DNA from: Trogon surrucura
Taxonomy: Eukaryota > Chordata > Aves > Trogoniformes > Trogonidae
Reading direction: 5' to 3'
Length of the DNA: 64,000 nt
NCBI GenBank assembly: GCA_020746105.1
Contig: CM036618.1
Span: 93,738,122-93,802,121, forward strand
Of the stretch, positions 31,089 through 54,900 are shown piece after piece. Below the pieces are notes generated by a model, which was not told the DNA's origin, made no database searches, and saw only the letters and a list, made by a program, of their open reading frames with translations. Positions within the stretch are counted from its first letter, which is position 1, and every line of letters begins with the position of its first letter. A program made the translations under genes and the position numbers.

Positions 31089-31094
31089 GACCAT
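31089..31094. repeat. Target site duplication, left copy (GACCAT)
   Basis: GACCAT directly precedes the TG of the left LTR and recurs exactly after the right LTR (33642-33647). Six-base duplications are typical of betaretrovirus/lentivirus-type and alpharetrovirus-type integrases. Confidence 0.93.
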
Positions 31095-31471
31095 TGTAGA
31101 GGAATTTCTTGTGGAGCAGAGGCGCGGTATAACTTTAAAAGCGTGGACAACCCAGCTTAGGCCTAAACAGAGGCTCTGTCCTTGAAGCTGCCTTGGAACA
31201 CAGGGAGGAGGAGGTTTTATCTGTTTTGTGAAGAGCCTTGCCAGGGGGAGAAAGGGGGGGTGAGAGCCGCTTGCATAGTGGAATGGCACTACCCAATAAA
31301 ACACTGGCGCGTGTGAACCTGTAACTGACCAACTCTGTTAAGGGGCAGGCGCGGGGACACTGCTGAACTGTATATCTTGAGCTGTCCGGAGCAATAAAGG
31401 GGTAACTACTTGTAGCCATATCAGTGGGATTTGTCATTGTCTTGGCCGGCTCTCCGACGGGACCCTCTTCA
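31095..31471 (+). repeat. 5' LTR of the provirus
   Basis: Runs from TGTAGAGGAATTTC to GACCCTCTTCA. I compared it line by line with the 3' copy and found no difference over 377 bases. It contains a CCAAT-like element (ACCCAATAAA, about 31291), a TATA-like TGTATATC (about 31370) and an AATAAA at 31393-31398. The short spacing of these suggests a very short R region. Confidence 0.96.
31291..31398 (+). promoter_or_regulatory. LTR core promoter and polyadenylation signal
   Basis: ACCCAATAAA at 31291-31300, CTGTATATCTTG around 31368-31379 and AATAAA at 31393-31398, in the order expected for U3 then R. The TATA-like box is imperfect. The first AATAAA-like string could itself act as an A/T-rich core element. 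Confidence 0.55.
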
Positions 31472-31473
31472 TC

Positions 31474-31491
31474 TGGCGCCCGAACAGGGAC
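31474..31491 (+). other. Primer binding site, tRNA-Lys3
   Basis: TGGCGCCCGAACAGGGAC starts two bases after the 5' LTR. This 18-mer is complementary to the 3' end of tRNA-Lys3 (UUU anticodon), the primer used by MMTV-like betaretroviruses and by lentiviruses. Avian alpharetroviruses instead use tRNA-Trp. Confidence 0.95.
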
Positions 31492-31651
31492 CCTCTATGG
31501 ACGCTTAAATGCGGATTGCTTAAATGTGGGAAGACTCCGAAGCATCGGACGTGAGCCGATTTGGGAGCCGGAGAGCTGGAGGCAGGAGAGTTCCGGGTGT
31601 GACCAAAAGGGCACCGGAGACCAGAGCTTGAGCGGCCGATCAAGCCCCTGC

Positions 31652-31660
31652 CAAGGTAAG
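31652..31660 (+). promoter_or_regulatory. Proviral major splice donor
   Basis: CCAAG|GTAAG, a near-consensus 5' splice site in the leader, with the cut after 31655. It lies 11 bases upstream of the gag ATG, as expected for making spliced env-type mRNA. Confidence 0.75.
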
Positions 31661-31666
31661 ACCGCG

Positions 31667-32146
31667 ATGGAAATGGACGCGGCAACTCGCCTCCTTAGTA
31701 TACTCTCTAAGAGAGGAGGAAAAGTAAAGGAGCGAGACGTATTAGCCCCATGGGCTCGGAAACGGGAGAAAATGAACGACCCGTCATTAATCTTTAGTTC
31801 CACGGAATGGCGTGAAGTAGGAGATCTTTTGTGGGACTGTACTCTAGAGGGAGGAAAAGAAGGAAAGGAAGCGAAAGAACTAGGAACAGTTTGGAAAACC
31901 GTAATACGCACTCTAGAAATCATGCAAGCAGAAAAGAAAGTTGCTGTGGCAGCGATCGAAGCATTGGGGGGAGGGCAGGAAAGGAAAAAGGCAAAGGAAG
32001 AAACTCCCTGCTCGTCCCGACTGGGTGGAAGAAAAAAAAAAAAAAAAGAAAAAGAAAAAGGAGAAACTGCACTGCGTTGCAGAATTAAGACTTTCGTCCT
32101 TGAGCTGAGCTCTTTTCTAAACAAGTGCATAACTCTTGCTTGCTAA
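31667..32146 (+). pseudogene. gag: Proviral gag, N-terminal (matrix) part, truncated
   Basis: The ATG at 31667 follows the leader and splice donor and opens 159 codons. The frame is also open upstream to 31424, but the viral start is taken at 31667 because it lies after the primer site and donor. Roughly the first 100 residues are mixed and helical, with ATRLLSILSKRGGK near the start and WREVGDLLWDCT in the middle, as in retroviral matrix domains. Near residue 122 the frame enters an A16 tract (32032-32047) that gives a lysine/glutamate run, and it stops at 32144. Full Gag polyproteins are several hundred residues, so this is a broken piece. No capsid or zinc-knuckle region follows in frame. 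The call rests on position and general character. Confidence 0.7.
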
Positions 32147-32338
32147 TTATGAAAAGAGACCCTGACCAGCCAGGTACAGCTCATGTTGAGAGCTTGTCCA
32201 TGAGAATGAAGATAAGACGCTGCTTGTACACCAGATGTGCATGGGAGTGAACGGGAGAGTACGATCAAAACAGACCTGGGAAATTCTGCTCTCCCTGTGT
32301 GATAACAGCGTGACTGAAGTAATACTTGAGCTAATAAG
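32060..32338 (+). other. Unassigned proviral segment between two A-rich tracts
   Basis: About 280 bases bounded by A-rich tracts at 32032-32058 and 32339-32366. An ATG at 32149 opens 33 codons with several Arg/Lys residues (for example MRMKIRRC) and stops at 32248. Basic short leaders are known at the start of betaretroviral Env, so this could be a displaced env leader piece; that is inference only. The rest does not read like the flanking gag pieces. Confidence 0.35.
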
Positions 32339-32360
32339 AAAAAAAAAAAAAGAAAAAAAA

Positions 32361-32537
32361 AAAAAAGGAGGGGGGGGGAAGAAGGAAGATCAGGATGAAC
32401 CCCTGAAAGAGATGCTGAACAAACTCGCTGAATTATCAACTAGACAGCAAGAAATAGAAGAAACCCTTAAACCAGTTCAGCTCCCCCATTACCATCAGCT
32501 CCCTCACTCAAGCCTGATTTTCAAGCTTGAACCATAA
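32361..32537 (+). pseudogene. gag: Proviral gag, charged middle segment
   Basis: After the second A-rich tract and a G run, a charged open stretch includes EPLKEMLNKLAEL and RQQEIEETLKP, predicted helical with leucine spacing, then a proline/histidine-rich part. This fits the linker between matrix and capsid in betaretrovirus-like Gag. It is out of register with the first gag piece because of the inserted segment, and it stops at 32535-32537. Confidence 0.5.
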
Positions 32538-32554
32538 AGGATCCTTTGCAATAG

Positions 32555-32677
32555 GGATGGAGCGGTGTCATCAGAGACGCTATAACAGAGGGAGATTGGG
32601 AAGCAGCCAGTTCGATTGCGTGTCCTGTTATTATTAATAATGGACAAGGGACCTGGGAACCGCATGATCCCGCATGA
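32555..32677 (+). pseudogene. gag: Proviral gag, start of capsid region, truncated
   Basis: Forty open codons, in a different frame from the preceding gag piece and ending at TGA 32675-32677. They include ITEGDWEAAS and GQGTWEPHD; a Trp-Glu-Pro-type motif near the capsid start is familiar from betaretrovirus-like Gag (inference from general family knowledge). The remainder of capsid, nucleocapsid and all of pol are missing after this point. Confidence 0.5.
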
Positions 32678-32775
32678 TGTGGCTGTGCAGCATCCTGTCA
32701 CTTCAGCAGCGTAGCAGCAACACGACCGTGCACTGGGCCTGCCCGTTGAATCCCTTTGTTTGCCCAGTGACGTGA

Positions 32776-32961
32776 TGGGACCCTGAGGTACCGATTACCA
32801 ACGATGATATGGACTGGACTGGCAGAAGATGCTTACAGCTGATGGTAGAGCAATTGTGGGAAAATGTGACTGTTCTCAATGTTACCTGTTGTATTAATAT
32901 GTATCCTCTTTGTGTGACTAACAATGAAGCTTATATTGGTTGTGTAATCAAAGCCACATAG
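32776..32961 (+). pseudogene. env: Proviral env, surface-subunit remnant
   Basis: Sixty-one open codons ending at TAG 32959-32961. They hold two N-glycosylation sequons (NVT twice) and clustered cysteines (NVTCC, YPLCV, IGCV), which fits a secreted viral envelope surface subunit. An in-frame TGA at 32773 precedes it, and no signal peptide is attached. The junction with the gag piece, around 32677-32775, is where the pol-containing deletion must lie. Confidence 0.6.
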
Positions 32962-33115
32962 TAGGTGTTAAGGTTTATGTACTAACCAGCAGAGTCATCT
33001 TTCTTTAGCTAAAAGCAAGGCAGGGAAACCAGCTGCCTTTTGCTTTGTTAGAAGTGTGTGATTAAGGATCAAAGTATGATTTAGGGCGATGGGTGTGAGA
33101 ACTTTGACAGGATGA

Positions 33116-33355
33116 ATTAAGAGTTTAGTTAAGGCATTTTTGGTTATTGCAGTTTTAATTGTTATAGGCTTACTTATGTTTAGTTGTTTGATAAGTATAA
33201 TCAAGAAAATTATAAGCAAGCTAGCAGATGAAGCCTGGGTTGTCCAAAAAGAAAAAGGGGGATATGTAGAGGAATTTCTTGTGGAGCAGAGGCGCGGTAT
33301 AACTTTAAAAGCGTGGACAACCCAGCTTAGGCCTAAACAGAGGCTCTGTCCTTGA
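33116..33355 (+). pseudogene. env: Proviral env, transmembrane-subunit C-terminus
   Basis: Opens just after an in-frame TGA (33113-33115). It encodes about 20 residues of mostly Leu, Ile and Val (from about 33140), a Cys, then IIKKII and a short tail (KLADEAWVV). This is the layout of a retroviral Env membrane anchor plus cytoplasmic tail. The frame crosses the polypurine tract and runs about 30 codons into the 3' LTR before stopping at 33353. The fusion peptide and ectodomain are absent, so it could not mediate entry. Confidence 0.65.
33246..33262 (+). other. Polypurine tract
   Basis: AAAAAGAAAAAGGGGGA sits two bases before the TG of the 3' LTR. It is the plus-strand primer site of retroviral reverse transcription. 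Confidence 0.93.
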
Positions 33356-33641
33356 AGCTGCCTTGGAACACAGGGAGGAGGAGGTTTTATCTGTTTTGTG
33401 AAGAGCCTTGCCAGGGGGAGAAAGGGGGGGTGAGAGCCGCTTGCATAGTGGAATGGCACTACCCAATAAAACACTGGCGCGTGTGAACCTGTAACTGACC
33501 AACTCTGTTAAGGGGCAGGCGCGGGGACACTGCTGAACTGTATATCTTGAGCTGTCCGGAGCAATAAAGGGGTAACTACTTGTAGCCATATCAGTGGGAT
33601 TTGTCATTGTCTTGGCCGGCTCTCCGACGGGACCCTCTTCA
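33265..33641 (+). repeat. 3' LTR of the provirus
   Basis: Same 377 bases as the 5' LTR by eye, ending CTCTTCA. No polymorphic position between the two copies was found, so they have had little time to diverge, unless gene conversion has kept them alike. Confidence 0.96.
33563..33568 (+). terminator. Polyadenylation signal in the 3' LTR
   Basis: AATAAA in the context GCAATAAAGG; the functional copy for 3' end formation of proviral transcripts. Confidence 0.7.
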
Positions 33642-33647
33642 GACCAT
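33642..33647. repeat. Target site duplication, right copy (GACCAT)
   Basis: Exact repeat of 31089-31094, directly after the CA of the 3' LTR. The match shows the element is one intact insertion event and not a product of recombination between two proviruses. Confidence 0.93.
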
Positions 33648-49500: not shown

Positions 49501-50041
49501 CGAGGCTCCTCAGAAACCCACGCCAAGAAAGAGCTCTCATGCTTTGATACACAGGGTGGTATAGAGCCACAGACACTTTAAAGAGGGTTGGCAGTTGGAT
49601 CAGTTTAATGTGTCAATGAAAACTCTCAACACATACCCTGTCTCCGTCTGTCTCACATTCAATAAAATTATCACATTCTAAGTTGCTACTGAGCAAGAGC
49701 AGCGACTGGTTGAGCTACTGAAGCATTAATGGCTTCTTTAATGCATCAACAGGGAGTCAGGTAAGCCAAGACTTAACACTTTTATAAAACAACTCTTATT
49801 AGTAAACCTGGTCACAAATACATGACTTCAATTAAATTTCAACCTACACATTCCTGGTTTTGGTAAAGATGTGTTTTATTTTCAATGTTAACCGACCTTG
49901 GCTTCAAGTGTAAGATGAGTAACAGCACCTGAAGAACGTATCAGAATTCCACTTTCGTTATTCCCATCCCAGTACTTTCCCACATAGCATTTTACACTCA
50001 GAGCAAAAAAGCAATTTCTAGCAGCGGGTTAGCAGTATTTC

Positions 50042-50120
50042 CACTTCACAGGCAAAACCAAGGGACAGGGAGTGAAAGACTGTAACTTGCTCAAGGCCAT
50101 TTGCTAAACCCAAACCAACT
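50042..50120 (+). repeat. Possible MIR-like fragment
   Basis: CTTCACAGGCAAAACCAAGG, then ACAGGGAGTGAAAGACTGTA and ACTTGCTCAAGGCCATTTGC match the MIR phrase order ending in TTGCCCAAGGTCA. Lies just outside the CpG island. Confidence 0.45.
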
Positions 50121-50791
50121 GATAAACCCCATTACTCAGCCCTCAAGTCCAGATGCTGGAAACTCCCCTCTCCTTTCCTTTCCTTCTCCTCAAAAGGTGG
50201 CGGCTGGTTATCGTCTATGCACCGTGCCAGCTGCACGCCTCCTGCTCTGCCACAGCTTACCTCCTGCTGGTCCCTTTCTCTGGGGCCAAAACACAAGGGA
50301 CGCGGTGACCTGCGCTCTCCCGCCTTCAGCTCGGTGTCTTCAGGCAGCGAGTGTGGTTCACCCCCCCCACACCCCTAACCGATTTTATTTCGTACTAACA
50401 AAAAACGACGACGAACACCTACAGAATAAGCAGGAAAAAGAAGACAAAGCCTCCCCGGCCTCCAGGCCTCCATCCTAGCCCGCAGCAGAGGTGTGGTACG
50501 GAAGCAAATGGAGACTACGCGGAACACGGCCTAGTCCGTCGCCCTCCCCTCCGCCCGCCGCCGGGGTCCCCCAGAGGCAGCCGCCCGTCACCGAGAGGCG
50601 CACAGGCCGCCCGCCCCGCGACACACCGGGCTGGCAGCGACCAGTCCCGCTCAGCTCCGGGCGAGAGCTTGGCCTGGGCACCAGCAGCTCACGCAGGTCC
50701 CAGCCCAGGAGGGAGCGGTGCGGGGCGGTGCGGCCCCCCCGGCCCCGGGCAGCGCGGGGGAGGTCCCCGAGGACCCGCTCGCCACCAACCA

Positions 50792-50799
50792 ACTTCCGC
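50792..50799 (-). promoter_or_regulatory. ETS/GABPA-type site
   Basis: ACTTCCGC on the plus strand, GCGGAAGT on the minus strand: the GGAA core with a favourable flank. It is 15 bases from the NRF1 site, a pairing common in housekeeping promoters. Confidence 0.5.
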
Positions 50800-50813
50800 G
50801 TAGAAGGCCCTGC

Positions 50814-50823
50814 GCGCATGCGC
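50814..50823. promoter_or_regulatory. NRF1-type site
   Basis: GCGCATGCGC, the full palindromic NRF1 consensus, about 640 bases upstream of the ZFAND3 start codon. NRF1 drives many CpG-island promoters, including bidirectional ones. Confidence 0.65.
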
Positions 50824-51321
50824 GGCCAACGCCGGCACCGCCACCCCTCTGGCCTTCCTTGGCTGTACCACTGTGTGTCTGATGTGTGGGTAGAGGCAAA
50901 GGAGGGCGGCGGTTCCAGGTAGCTCTGTAAGCCTTCGCCGCCGCCCCGCAAGCTTCCGCACGGGGAAGTTCAGTCCCTTCTCGGACCTGTGCGTAGTTTC
51001 CAAACTCGCTTCTTTCCTAGTTTCCGCCCCCGATCTAACCCAACTCCCCCACAGGCTGGGCTATGGTATATGCCACTCCCAGCTGATCCGGTGGCTTGGC
51101 GAAACCATCCCTCTCAGGACAGGGGGAGGCCAGGTGCTGGAGGAGGGGGACACACGCGCATTGTTGAGTCAGGGGCCGAGCGGCAGGGGAGGCCGTGCGC
51201 GCCCCGCTGCGGCAGCGGGGTCGTCACAGAAACCGGCGGGCGGGAGAGGCCGTCGCAGAGAACTCCGTGCTGCGGCCCCGCTCCCCTGCGGGCCTGGCCT
51301 GTAGGGCGCGGCCACCTCCCG

Positions 51322-51336
51322 CCCCCCCCCCCCCCC
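51322..51336. repeat. C15 homopolymer in the promoter
   Basis: Fifteen consecutive C bases, 126 to 140 bases before the start codon, probably in the 5' UTR or core promoter. Its length may be unreliable in assemblies. Confidence 0.85.
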
Positions 51337-51461
51337 TCCCCTTCACCGCCTCCCCAGTGGTCGCGTCCGGCTCCAGCTGACCGGCCCGGAATCCCGGCTG
51401 GGAGCCCCGCGTCCCCCCCCCCCTGCTCGCCGCTGCCGCCGCCCCGCGCCCCGGCCCCGCC

Positions 51462-51532
51462 ATGGGAGACGCCGGCAGCGAGCGCAGCAAGGCGCCCAGC
51501 TTGCCACCGCGCTGCCCCTGCGGCTTTTGGGG
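51462..51532 (+). CDS. ZFAND3: ZFAND3 first coding exon
   Basis: Encodes 23 residues plus two bases of a glycine codon: MGDAGSERSKAPSLPPRCPC, then GFW. I recognise this as the conserved N-terminus of ZFAND3 (TEX27), a protein of about 227 residues with an N-terminal A20-type and a C-terminal AN1-type zinc finger. Cys18 and Cys20 are the first two zinc ligands of the A20 finger, so the intron splits that finger. The start lies in a strong Kozak context (CCGCCATGG). It is the first ATG after an in-frame TGA at 51378-51380, so the start is firm. The exon ends in GG|GTAAGC, a good donor, leaving phase 2. The remaining exons are beyond the window. ZFAND3 is reported as a nuclear, DNA-associated regulator in glioblastoma invasion, and its human locus is linked to type 2 diabetes; its biochemical role is poorly known. 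Confidence 0.93.
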
Positions 51533-51538
51533 GTAAGC
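51533..51538 (+). other. ZFAND3: ZFAND3 intron 1 splice donor
   Basis: GTAAGC follows the exon directly (TTTTGGGG|GTAAGC). An in-frame TAA lies at 51534, so without splicing translation would end after 24 residues. Confidence 0.9.
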
Positions 51539-51666
51539 GAGGCTCGAGGGCGAGGAGGGGGCTGGGCCAGAGCCGGGCCTTGCCTGGCCCGGCGCGGGGA
51601 GGGGGGCGGGCGGCGAGGCGAAGGGCGAGGCGGCGGGGGACCGCGGCCGGGTGGGGGCAGGGCCCG

Positions 51667-51699
51667 GGCCGGGCCTGGCCTGGCCTGGCCTGGTCTGGC
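51667..51699. repeat. Short GGCCT pentamer repeat
   Basis: GGGCCTGGCCTGGCCTGGCC and continuing, imperfect 5-base tandem units in the CpG island, intron side. Confidence 0.75.
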
Positions 51700-51943
51700 G
51701 GGTAGACTGGTCGGTTGGGGCGCCGGGCCAGGTCGTAGCCCTGAACTCGGGCCTGTCACGGGGGCCGAGCCGGTAGCTCGACCCGGGGGCGGGGGCGGCC
51801 GCTGGACCCTGCCGGGCCAGCCGCGAGGGGTGCCCCGTGGGGAAGAGGGGTGTCTCCCCCCCGCCGGCTTGTGGCGGGGTGTGCCGCGTCCTGGGGGGGG
51901 AGCCGGGCGGGGGTGGCTCCAGGCTTAGAGACAGCGGGTGGCC

Positions 51944-51967
51944 GGGGGGTGGGGGTTGGGAGGGGGG
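51944..51967 (+). other. Predicted G-quadruplex-forming block
   Basis: Four G runs of 6, 5, 3 and 6 bases separated by loops of one or two bases (GGGGGGTGGGGGTTGGG, then AGGGGGG). This meets the usual quadruplex rule with very short loops, on the non-template strand about 410 bases after the exon. Confidence 0.7.
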
Positions 51968-54900
51968 AGGTGGCGGCGTTGTTTCCCGGCGCGGGGGGGG
52001 GGCAGCCTGGCCGTGTGCGGGGGCCCCGCGGCCTCCCCCGCCGCTCGGGCACCTCGGCCGGCTCCCTTCGTGGCAGCTCGGCGAGGGGAGGCCTGCTCGC
52101 TTCCCCAGACACGCAGGTTTCCTGGAGCGGCTGCCCCTCCTTTGGGGCTGCGGGCTGCGCTCCGGGGCCTGCCTTTAGCTCCTCATAGGCGCAGATGAGC
52201 GATGTGGGCCCTCGGCTGCCCGGCTTGGTGTCCTGGAGCCCGGTGCCCCAACACATCCCTGCCCTGCGCTGGAAACGGGGAGCTCTTGCTGCTGTTCACG
52301 CAGGTCAACGCAAGGCAGCATAACTAATGATGGAAAAAGGCTAAGGACAGAAATAGGCTTCTTTTTCCACCTTATGAAGGCAGGGAGGTTCATAATAGGT
52401 AAGGTCCTTGTTAGCTGTTGGCCGAACCCGTTTTAAAAAGAAGGATGTAGGGCCACTCCTGTTTGCCTAAGGTGAAAAAAAAAAAGTAAGCCAATTCCTT
52501 GCTAAACTCCTTTCACCTCGAGGATCATGTTGCTGGAGATGTTTCCATTATTGATTTTTATTTTTTTTTGAATGCGATGTGTCATGGCAGATGGCATACT
52601 GGCAGAGACACATGATCATAAAGTGCCTTTAATGTACATCACAGAAATATTAGTCCCTAATGTTCTTATTTGTGAAAAGTTCAAAGAATGTGTGACTAAA
52701 TAGACTTTTGAGGGCCCACCTGAGATATATGCTTGGCTGTGATTGCACCTTCTTGGGATTTATGTCATACAATTTAAGGTACTCTGGGGAGGTGGAGGCT
52801 GAGAGAAAAGAGATGCAATAAAAGTGATTTAGTGATGTCACTGTACATTTAGTTCTTTTTTTTGGCGTGGCAGGATTTTAAATGAAATCCCATTTTTGAG
52901 TTATAACACAAGCCTGAACTGCAACAAATGCCATGGCACTGGTGGGAACGATCTTGTGAGATTATAAATATGCAGTAAATTATTTTGTTTATTTTTGTTT
53001 AGTTAGGCTCCCGTATTTGGTCCTGATGTTTTCTGTAATGTAGGGGAAAGCAAGTTGCTGCTATGTCTAATGTAGTATACTGGCTTCTGTAACATGATAC
53101 TGATGTGAAAAGAGAGTTGCAGGAAGTTGAATGCAAACTTTTTCTTGGGGCTGAACTTCTTGGCTAGTTCAGCATGCTGTGATAGTGGAAGAAAATCTGG
53201 TGCTTAGTGTTCAGGGATCTGCTTAATGATGACAGGATGCTCTCAAGAAAACTTAATGCCTTTAAAGCTGATACTTTTTTTTTTTTAAGAGAAGCATCCC
53301 TTTCACAAGCAGCTATCCAAATCGTATTTTTTTGCTTCCCCCCCTAGAGTGTCACCCATGTAGTAGTGTTTCTTCTAAGATGCTTTTTCACAGCACTGTG
53401 AAAAAAGCCTCACTTTTGTCGACCAATACAGTGAAGAAATTAATCCATTTTTCAGTTTCTTTAAGTGTCTGCCAGGTATGTTTCAATACACAGTGGCACA
53501 CTACATGTTTATTTTTTCACTTAAAAACAAAACCAACAAAACCCAGAACAATGCTTTCAGCTTTCAGAGTTTGATGATTTGTTATACTTCTCAGTCCTGA
53601 AGAAACTGAAGTGTCTTCTTGTCCTCATTTACCTAGGCCTTGCTAGTGCTGGAAAATATTGGTTGGTAAATCTATGTAGGCATGAACTTCTAGTGAATTT
53701 GCATTGGCAAGAGAATTTAAGGGGTCAGAGTTCTATACCAGCTTTCTGAAGAAATTAAAGCATGATAACAAAAAGACTTGTACACTTCTAAAGTTGGAAC
53801 TCTGCTGCTCTTTATGTCAGCTCAGGTTATTACCAGCAATGTGTCTTATGATAGACTCTTACCTGCGACTTTTATGTCACTGTTATGTGTCTGTCAAATC
53901 ACATTTTGGAGTAACAAGGCCATATTTGCTCTTTATCTGCAGTACATCTAAGACTATGAAGTTCTGAAACTTGTAGTTTAATGTAGTAATTTCCATGGAA
54001 TTTGTAAATAAAGTCACATAGAGGAATAGTGTTATTTTTATGTTTCCTACTCCGCAGTGGTTGATAATCCTTTGATGATTGTTCTTGGGTGAGCCCAAAC
54101 CATGCAGGTAGCTGAACAGCTTGGGGTCAATGGGTCAAATGATAATGTCTAGATTTTGCCAGCATAAAAGATTGTAATTGGTTTGGTTTTGGTTTTGATT
54201 GATGTTATATAAAGCTTATTCATGACTATTTACAGTAAGATGCAAACTTTCTGCAGTAATCCACAAAGAGAGAAACATTAAGGAAAACATGGAAAGAAGT
54301 ATTAATATTGAAGCAAGATGTGAGTTTCTGGGCTGAAATTCTGGGCTGAAACCTCTTTCTGAGCAGTGATAATAATAGCAGCTCCTGAGATGCTCACTGA
54401 TAGTGGTGGAATGCAAAAAGATTACAGGATAAGTCTAGTATGTACTATTGCATTAAGGTTGGAGGGTTTCTTTTAAAATGCTTGGGTTTATATTAGAAAT
54501 TCACATCCTGTAGGTTTCAAGAATCTCTAGTGAATGGAAAACTACTAAACTCTTAATGTTTAAAGATCTAAGAGAATGGAAAATGAACACCTGAAAGAAG
54601 GGACTTGAGTGAGGCTGTTCAGAACTTCTGAAACATCCGCTTAAGGTCAACAGCTAACATTTGCTTACCTTTTGTTGAAGATCATGGAATTCATCCTTAA
54701 ATCTTCTGCAGACTTGCCCTTCTCTTTAGAATGTCCAGTCTGTCATTTCTCCTCAGAATAAAGTTCAAATGAAGCACTGAGATGATCTTTATATTTTACA
54801 AAATCTTTTCAGTTACTCAGATAATCTCAATTGGGTAGCCTCATCTGCAGTTATGTTGTTTATGACAAATCCACACAACTTATTGTTTAGAAGTATTTTG

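What the first reader, a model, noticed from the sequence alone, without database searches (positions are those of the whole stretch)
31095..33641. Very young, internally deleted provirus with identical LTRs
Both 377-bp LTRs read the same base for base and the 6-bp target duplication is perfect, yet the 1.8-kb interior lacks all of pol. A fresh insertion of a defective genome implies that it was copied by enzymes supplied in trans by a related replication-competent element that is, or recently was, active in this bird. It may differ between individuals.
Basis: partly seen in the sequence, partly recalled or inferred. Interest (0 to 1): 0.8.

Follow-up and report, generated by a model that had tools for sequence, protein, structure and literature searches.

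The report
Mass-copied defective bird retrovirus, recent insertion
This is one recent copy of a stripped-down bird retrovirus remnant that carries no copying enzymes of its own, yet its tell-tale internal join occurs about 750 times in this genome, so it has probably lived off related elements for a long time, much like virus-parasite elements known from mice and cattle.

Summary
In detail: both LTRs are 377 bp and identical, the 6-bp duplication GACCAT is perfect, and the 1793-bp interior shows no pol. The reading needs changing. The internal deletion is not private to this copy: its gag-to-3' junction occurs 752 times in the genome at up to 3 mismatches, reversed control 0. Of 30 loci fetched with an interior segment, 29 (window included) have the same layout. 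So this is one young insertion of an amplified, non-autonomous, class II (ERVK-like) lineage, here called S. Related ~5-kb proviruses (L) keep gag, dUTPase and protease but lack most of pol. S and L share LTR variants and separate mainly beside an S-specific segment; S interiors carry three LTR types. That fits co-packaging and recombination, so copying in trans is well supported. Gag shows coding constraint in L, not in S. Relatives with a reverse-transcriptase domain in frames of 886-895 codons exist, but their LTRs were not read. Identical LTRs only bound the age (about 1.6-2.1 My). Polymorphism is untested. New member of a known kind.

The parts
31089..31094 (.). target-site duplication GACCAT, left copy
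31095..31471 (+). 5' LTR, 377 bp, of the LTR type shared with the 5-kb (L) class
31474..31491 (+). primer-binding site TGGCGCCCGAACAGGGAC (tRNA-Lys3 type; the label is recalled)
   Evidence: U5-PBS junction found 152 times in the genome at up to 1 mismatch
31472..31666 (+). leader, shared with L class, no fixed S/L difference (5 S, 10 L copies)
31667..32024 (+). 5' part of gag (matrix region), frame open but evolving without detectable coding constraint in the S class
32025..32382 (+). S-specific segment f1, A-rich at both ends; stands in place of 309 bp of L gag; a similar stretch (86.9%) lies in the 3' half of a relative (L069)
32383..32668 (+). later part of gag up to the start of the capsid region, with 91 bp missing at 32476/32477 relative to L
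32669..32965 (+). S-specific segment f2 (follows the integrase piece in relative L069); begins at the gag deletion junction found 752 times in the genome
32966..33264 (+). 3' internal block including a short membrane-anchor-like frame (33116 on; by eye), with about 258 bp missing near 33076 relative to L
33246..33261 (+). polypurine tract AAAAAGAAAAAGGGGG
33265..33641 (+). 3' LTR, identical to the 5' LTR
33642..33647 (.). target-site duplication GACCAT, right copy

Best explanation
The element is one recent insertion of an amplified non-autonomous ERVK-like lineage (S). It keeps the signals an RNA genome needs (LTRs, primer-binding site, leader, polypurine tract) and no working gene. Its transcript is packaged by Gag of related proviruses, reverse-transcribed by their polymerase, and integrated with a 6-bp duplication. 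Inside the particles S RNA pairs with related RNAs, and template switching lets S pick up their LTRs. Shown: structure, junction count, private target duplications, S/L sequence sharing, coding constraint in L and none detected in S, and relatives with a reverse-transcriptase domain in long open frames. Inferred: co-packaging, the identity of the enzyme donor, and present-day activity.
For: The S junction occurs 752 times (357 + 395; reversed control 0), against 176 (84 + 92; control 0) for the uninterrupted gag sequence at the same place. It is found at the same length in 33 of 33 copies read, window included. Of 30 f2 loci 29, window included, have the S layout. Five S copies with the 377-type LTR sit at different places: 4 of 5 have perfect 6-bp duplications; in the fifth, L032, they differ by one base if the last LTR base is read as changed. 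Mean LTR distance is S-S 0.0249, L-L 0.0252, S-L 0.0249 (42 LTRs). Fixed S/L differences: 0 in both LTRs and in element 378-653, 13 columns at element 654-935 next to the S-specific segment; the 5' LTR tree rejects S as one clade (AU p 0.014) while the region beside the segment gives S 100/100 support. The 377-type S copies are not one clade by interior either (AU p 0.034). Distinct changes in gag: L capsid 24 synonymous versus 14.9 expected, P 0.004; L matrix 17 versus 9.6, P 0.004; S matrix 28 versus 28.9, P 0.62. RVT_1 domains over the Pfam cut-off lie in open frames of 895 and 886 codons at relatives' pol starts. Of 29 S loci, 8 (window included) have no difference over the comparable LTR stretch.
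Against: Gene conversion between integrated copies could also mix LTRs. In the shared 3' internal block one search counts 1 fixed column (none). Twelve of the 36 columns counted as shared polymorphism in the leader region lie in one short stretch (397-408) and may be one event or an alignment effect. Interior trees are weakly supported (3 of 30 inner branches starred). The S gag frame has fewer stop-making changes than expected (2 versus 5.2, P 0.09), so a weak constraint is not excluded. No expression data.
Confidence: 0.86

Rival explanations
1. A one-off internally deleted provirus: the deletion arose during the reverse transcription that made this insertion, from a full-length parent.
For: Identical LTRs and a perfect duplication are what one event would leave.
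Against: The same junction occurs 752 times and in 33 of 33 copies read; older relatives carry the junction or the interior.
Confidence: 0.03
2. S copies multiplied by segmental duplication or ectopic exchange of DNA, not by reverse transcription.
For: By eye, matches crowd on some contigs (C60-C63), and one L copy has LTRs that differ at 8 of 377 positions with an intact duplication (L040), as conversion could cause.
Against: 4 of 5 S copies and 8 of 8 L copies (L035-L042) have perfect private 6-bp duplications; 10 of 11 solo LTRs also do; the window's left flank has one match. The duplications of the other S copies were not examined, because their left flanks were not fetched.
Confidence: 0.04
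3. LTR sharing between S and L comes from gene conversion between integrated copies, not from recombination in particles; mobilisation in trans still holds.
For: Some proviruses have 5' and 3' LTRs in different parts of the tree (L032, L040, L044; FastTree without tested support).
Against: Exchange stops near the boundary of the class-specific segment, a pattern that the cattle ERVK study attributes to recombination between co-packaged RNAs (PMC10924933, passages read).
Confidence: 0.2

Closest known systems
Bovine ERVK[2-1-LTR] D-type elements (PMC10924933; abstract and passages read)
   Same: ERVK; a defective form outnumbers the competent one; central segment exchanged, flanks and LTRs shared; recombination between forms with differences kept near the boundary; authors infer trans-complementation.
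   Different: Here 2.5 kb against about 6.8 kb, a bird host, a second defective class (L) that keeps gag-dUTPase-protease, and several LTR types on one interior. No mobilisation was measured here.
ETn/MusD in mouse and nonautonomous mysTR-related ERVKs in deer mouse (PMC10089650; passages read)
   Same: Abundant ERVK-derived elements without coding capacity that depend on related coding elements.
   Different: Different retroviral lineage and host; the enzyme donor is not pinned down here.
EAV-HP and ART-CH of chicken (PMC4607243; passages and background section read)
   Same: Bird elements: EAV-HP is inactivated, still spreading and believed to use a helper; ART-CH shares R-U5 but not U3 with it.
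   Different: EAV belongs to the alpharetroviruses (for ART-CH recalled); relatives of the present element have a betaretrovirus-like capsid and dUTPase-protease.
Avian ERVK-like Gag proteins (search hits)
   Same: Same Gag family; 25 of the 26 named hits are birds (zebra finch, a crow, a white-eye, pigeons and others), 1 is a bat.
   Different: Best hit is 62% identical over 51% of the query; only 7995 candidates were scored.

Membership tests
Non-autonomous LTR retroelement / defective ERV lineage | two LTRs, primer site, polypurine tract, target duplication | tested here: met
Non-autonomous LTR retroelement / defective ERV lineage | many copies sharing one internal structure | tested here: met
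   752 junctions; 29 of 30 loci
Non-autonomous LTR retroelement / defective ERV lineage | no own protease, polymerase or integrase | tested here: met
   no retroviral family in 4 frames of the window copy; same layout in the copies compared
Non-autonomous LTR retroelement / defective ERV lineage | mobilised by an identified autonomous partner | tested here: inconclusive
   RVT_1 domains in long open frames among relatives; LTR and leader of those not read
Class II ERV (ERVK, betaretrovirus-like) | capsid closest to betaretroviruses | tested here: met
   on the L relative L036: Gag_p24 6.1e-34; the two best solved structures are HERV-K Gag. The S element itself lacks capsid
Class II ERV (ERVK, betaretrovirus-like) | dUTPase fused before protease | tested here: met
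   on relatives L036 and L069, not in S; that this order marks the class is recalled
Class II ERV (ERVK, betaretrovirus-like) | 6-bp target duplication | tested here: met
   that this fits the class is recalled
Insertionally polymorphic, currently active ERV | presence/absence between individuals | not testable with these tools
   one assembly, left flank found once

The most novel reading that the evidence does not exclude
A three-layer retroelement community in one bird genome: a few pol-bearing relatives, an L class that has lost most of pol but still evolves a constrained gag (a possible shared Gag donor), and an S class that codes for nothing and keeps pace by taking over the LTRs of whichever lineage is active.
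Probability: 0.3. Interest if true: 0.68.

Novelty: new member of a known kind. Interest (0 to 1): 0.47.

Why it matters
It turns a single 'young defective provirus' into a measurable system in one bird: about 750 junction copies of one parasite RNA, a gag-bearing partly defective class, and relatives with open reverse-transcriptase frames. In the papers read here such systems are described for mouse, deer mouse, cattle and koala. Bird genomes are commonly held to have few active mobile elements (recalled), so a defective lineage of this size that exchanges LTRs with its relatives would let one test whether parasites of retroviruses dampen or prolong retroviral activity in birds.

Tried and rejected
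Lentivirus-like envelope: the frame 32776-32958 looked, from memory, like a gp120 motif; phmmer against solved structures gave nothing meaningful (3 matches, best E 0.41), so rejected. Pfam on four frames of the window element gave no retroviral family. Rfam at gathering scores: no match in the window. IMG/VR: none of 6 pattern matches encoded a relative of the capsid. The guess that one pol-bearing copy's 5' LTR lay at a fixed distance upstream failed: the 801 fetched bases (L082) match neither LTR nor leader. Searches were pauses only; searches also held a pause. Nine literature searches (listings capped at 8-15) listed no title that describes an amplified non-autonomous ERVK-like lineage in a bird; I did not open most of the listed papers and the library lacks most subscription papers, so this does not show it is unpublished.

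Drops before counts: L052 is the window copy; it was counted as the window and replaced by the window's own letters (33 S copies: 28 + window + L031-L034). The label '34 copies' printed is wrong; the set has 33. L069 was left out of S counts because it has another layout. In one search columns with too many gaps were skipped. LTR hits under 94% were left out of the tree. LTR differences of L032, L041 and L042 were not counted because the two LTRs differ in length. L046 is one-sided and was not used in the class comparisons. Of the 40 f2 matches, 10 came without a locus and were not read; of the 40 LTR matches, 10 came without a locus and all ten were reached through fetched regions.
Full report
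1. The observation. The two LTRs (31095-31471, 33265-33641) are identical over 377 bases, begin TG and end CA, and are flanked by GACCAT on both sides. A primer-binding site and a polypurine tract sit where a provirus needs them. The interior is 1793 bp. Pfam gave no retroviral family in the four frames tried.

2. How young. Zero differences in 377 gives a 95% upper age of 2.09 My at 1.9e-9 and 1.59 My at 2.5e-9 substitutions per site per year (rates recalled; 3.32 to 0.86 My over the four rates tried). A chicken study used 0.2-0.26% per site per My (PMC5260121, passages). 'Very young' is therefore allowed but not shown. The left flank has one match in the assembly, so no second allele is on hand.

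3. The genome holds the family. The window lies in a 1.17-Gb assembly. The LTR search scored 40 of 2511 candidates, all 97-100% identical. By structure these 40 LTRs are: 10 in five 2.54-2.59-kb proviruses, 19 in or beside proviruses of about 5 kb, and 11 solo LTRs. Of the five short ones, four have a perfect private 6-bp duplication; the fifth (L032) differs by one base if its last LTR base is read as changed. Eight of eight 5-kb copies (L035-L042) have perfect duplications, as do 10 of 11 solo LTRs.

4. The deletion is shared. The five short copies have one interior: L031-L034 against the window are 97.7, 97.0, 96.5 and 93.6% identical. A search with the segment f2 (32669-32965) scored 40 of 995 candidates, all 98-100%. 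Of the 30 loci fetched, 29 including the window have the full S layout; apart from the window itself, the interior segments are 93-99% identical to it. The stretch across the gag-f2 junction has the same 51-base length in 33 of 33 S copies, window included. As a 37-base pattern with up to 3 mismatches, the junction occurs 752 times in the genome (357 forward, 395 reverse; reversed control 0). The uninterrupted gag sequence at that point occurs 176 times (84 + 92; control 0). The pattern counts include diverged or partial copies, so 752 counts junctions, not proven complete proviruses.

5. The L class. Eight copies were 4845-5045 bp, and two more of 4971 and 4849 bp were found. L036 encodes capsid (Gag_p24, E 6.1e-34), a zinc knuckle, dUTPase fused to retroviral protease, and an RNase H fragment under its cut-off; no reverse transcriptase or integrase family was reported in the eight frames tried. 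Four of ten L copies hold a piece of 56-64 residues resembling the start of reverse transcriptase. The capsid is closest in the PDB to HERV-K. Of 26 named Gag relatives among 29 hits, 25 are from birds.

6. Where S came from. Relative to L, S keeps the leader and 5' gag, has f1 in place of 309 bp of gag, lacks 91 and about 258 bp, and joins gag to f2. A relative, L069, carries zinc knuckle, dUTPase-protease, then a frame whose first part matches retroviral reverse transcriptase (E 1.3e-27) and whose next part matches integrase (E 1.7e-10 in the PDB; Pfam rve under its cut-off), then f2 and a transmembrane envelope frame, with an f1-like stretch (86.9%) in its 3' half. So f1 and f2 occur in a retroviral setting, and capture of host sequence is not needed to explain them. 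Two older relatives give a partial order of events. One on C60 has the gag-f2 join but still holds the 91- and 258-bp pieces and the L-type gag stretch (74%). One on C61 has the S interior (91-97%) under an LTR only 82% identical and still holds the 258-bp piece, interrupted by about 470 bp. The two ends of the C60 relative have unlike LTRs and no clear duplication, so it may be two elements.

7. S and L share sequence outside the S-specific segments. Mean LTR distances are S-S 0.0249, L-L 0.0252, S-L 0.0249 (42 LTRs). With 5 S and 10 L copies, columns polymorphic in both classes number 12 in the 5' LTR, 14 in the 3' LTR and 36 in element 378-653 (about a third of these 36 in one short stretch, 397-408). 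Fixed differences are 0 in those regions and 13 at element 654-935, next to the S-specific segment, where 4 columns are still shared. The 5' LTR tree rejects S as one clade (AU p 0.0137), while the region beside the segment gives S 100/100 support. In the 3' internal block one search reports no fixed column and one. Among 29 S loci, 1 (the window) has the 377-type LTR, 4 a 374-377-nt type at about 92-95%, and 24 a 400-402-nt type at about 84-87% over the whole 3' LTR. By interior sequence the five 377-type copies are not one clade (AU p 0.034), though most branches are weak. The simplest reading is template switching between co-packaged RNAs. Conversion between DNA copies is the rival.

8. Who supplies proteins. 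In S the gag remnant evolves like non-coding sequence: 28 synonymous of 101 distinct changes against 28.9 expected; 2 stop-making changes against 5.2 expected, P 0.09 (33 copies). In L, capsid (24 versus 14.9, P 0.004) and matrix (17 versus 9.6, P 0.004) show coding constraint, while the region between them does not clearly (22 versus 18.3, P 0.18; 10 copies). Of 150 capsid matches scored (706 candidates), 27 lie in frames of 770-791 codons with no stop in the matched stretch (my count). Of 150 matches to the L069 frame scored (1607 candidates), four reverse-transcriptase starts at 95-98% identity lie in open frames of 418, 612, 895 and 895 codons. Among 150 matches to the L-type start scored (450 candidates), one lies in an open frame of 886 codons and a few more in frames of 302-562, some with a stop in the match; by its coordinates the 886-codon case follows an L-type capsid match of 96%. 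A search with RVT_1 (150 of 24741 candidates scored) found this domain, over the Pfam cut-off and nearly full length, in the two 895-codon frames and the 886-codon frame, and in many frames of other retroviral lineages. Open frame is not proof of function, and the LTRs and leaders of these copies were not read. Which copy, if any, served as donor is unknown.

9. Compared with what is known. Bovine ERVK[2-1-LTR] has a defective D-type that makes up 85% of catalogued full-length elements, shares LTRs and flanks with the competent form, recombines with it except near the boundary, and dominates new insertions (PMC10924933, abstract and passages). Deer mouse ERVKs amplified mainly as nonautonomous forms (PMC10089650, passages). 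In chicken, EAV-HP is believed to need a helper, and ART-CH shares R-U5 with it (PMC4607243, background section). The present element works like these and meets the structural tests for a non-autonomous ERVK-like lineage. The partner remains unproven.

10. Verdict. Observation confirmed. Interpretation partly supported: the copying in trans is very likely right, the fresh-deletion picture is wrong, and extreme youth and polymorphism are open.

Noticed in passing
L033 with L050/L051 (C61): An S provirus with 377-type LTR is inserted, opposite strand, near the gag start of an older S-interior provirus with a different LTR type.
   Followed up: yes
L040 with L048/L049 (C60): A 5-kb copy is inserted inside an older relative whose 5' and 3' LTRs belong to different subgroups and which lies in CATTC-like repeat sequence.
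   Followed up: partly
L069:2-250 (-): Transmembrane envelope frame matches both TLV_coat (1.8e-5, over its cut-off) and GP41 (0.0013, under its cut-off) in Pfam.
   Followed up: no
contigs C60-C63: By eye, retroviral gag and pol matches are crowded on a few small contigs; these could be W-chromosome pieces, described as an ERV refuge in birds (PMC8310711, passages). Not tested.
   Followed up: no
genome-wide: Other retroviral lineages have reverse-transcriptase frames of one repeated length (875, 904 and 1191 codons) in several copies each, which suggests further recently active ERV families in this bird.
   Followed up: no
window 50001-52000: G+C rises to 0.696 against 0.39-0.43 on either side, possibly a CpG island of a host gene.
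   Followed up: no
window 32025-32066 and 32336-32389: A-rich and G-rich runs bound f1; alignments of S copies show gaps there.
   Followed up: partly
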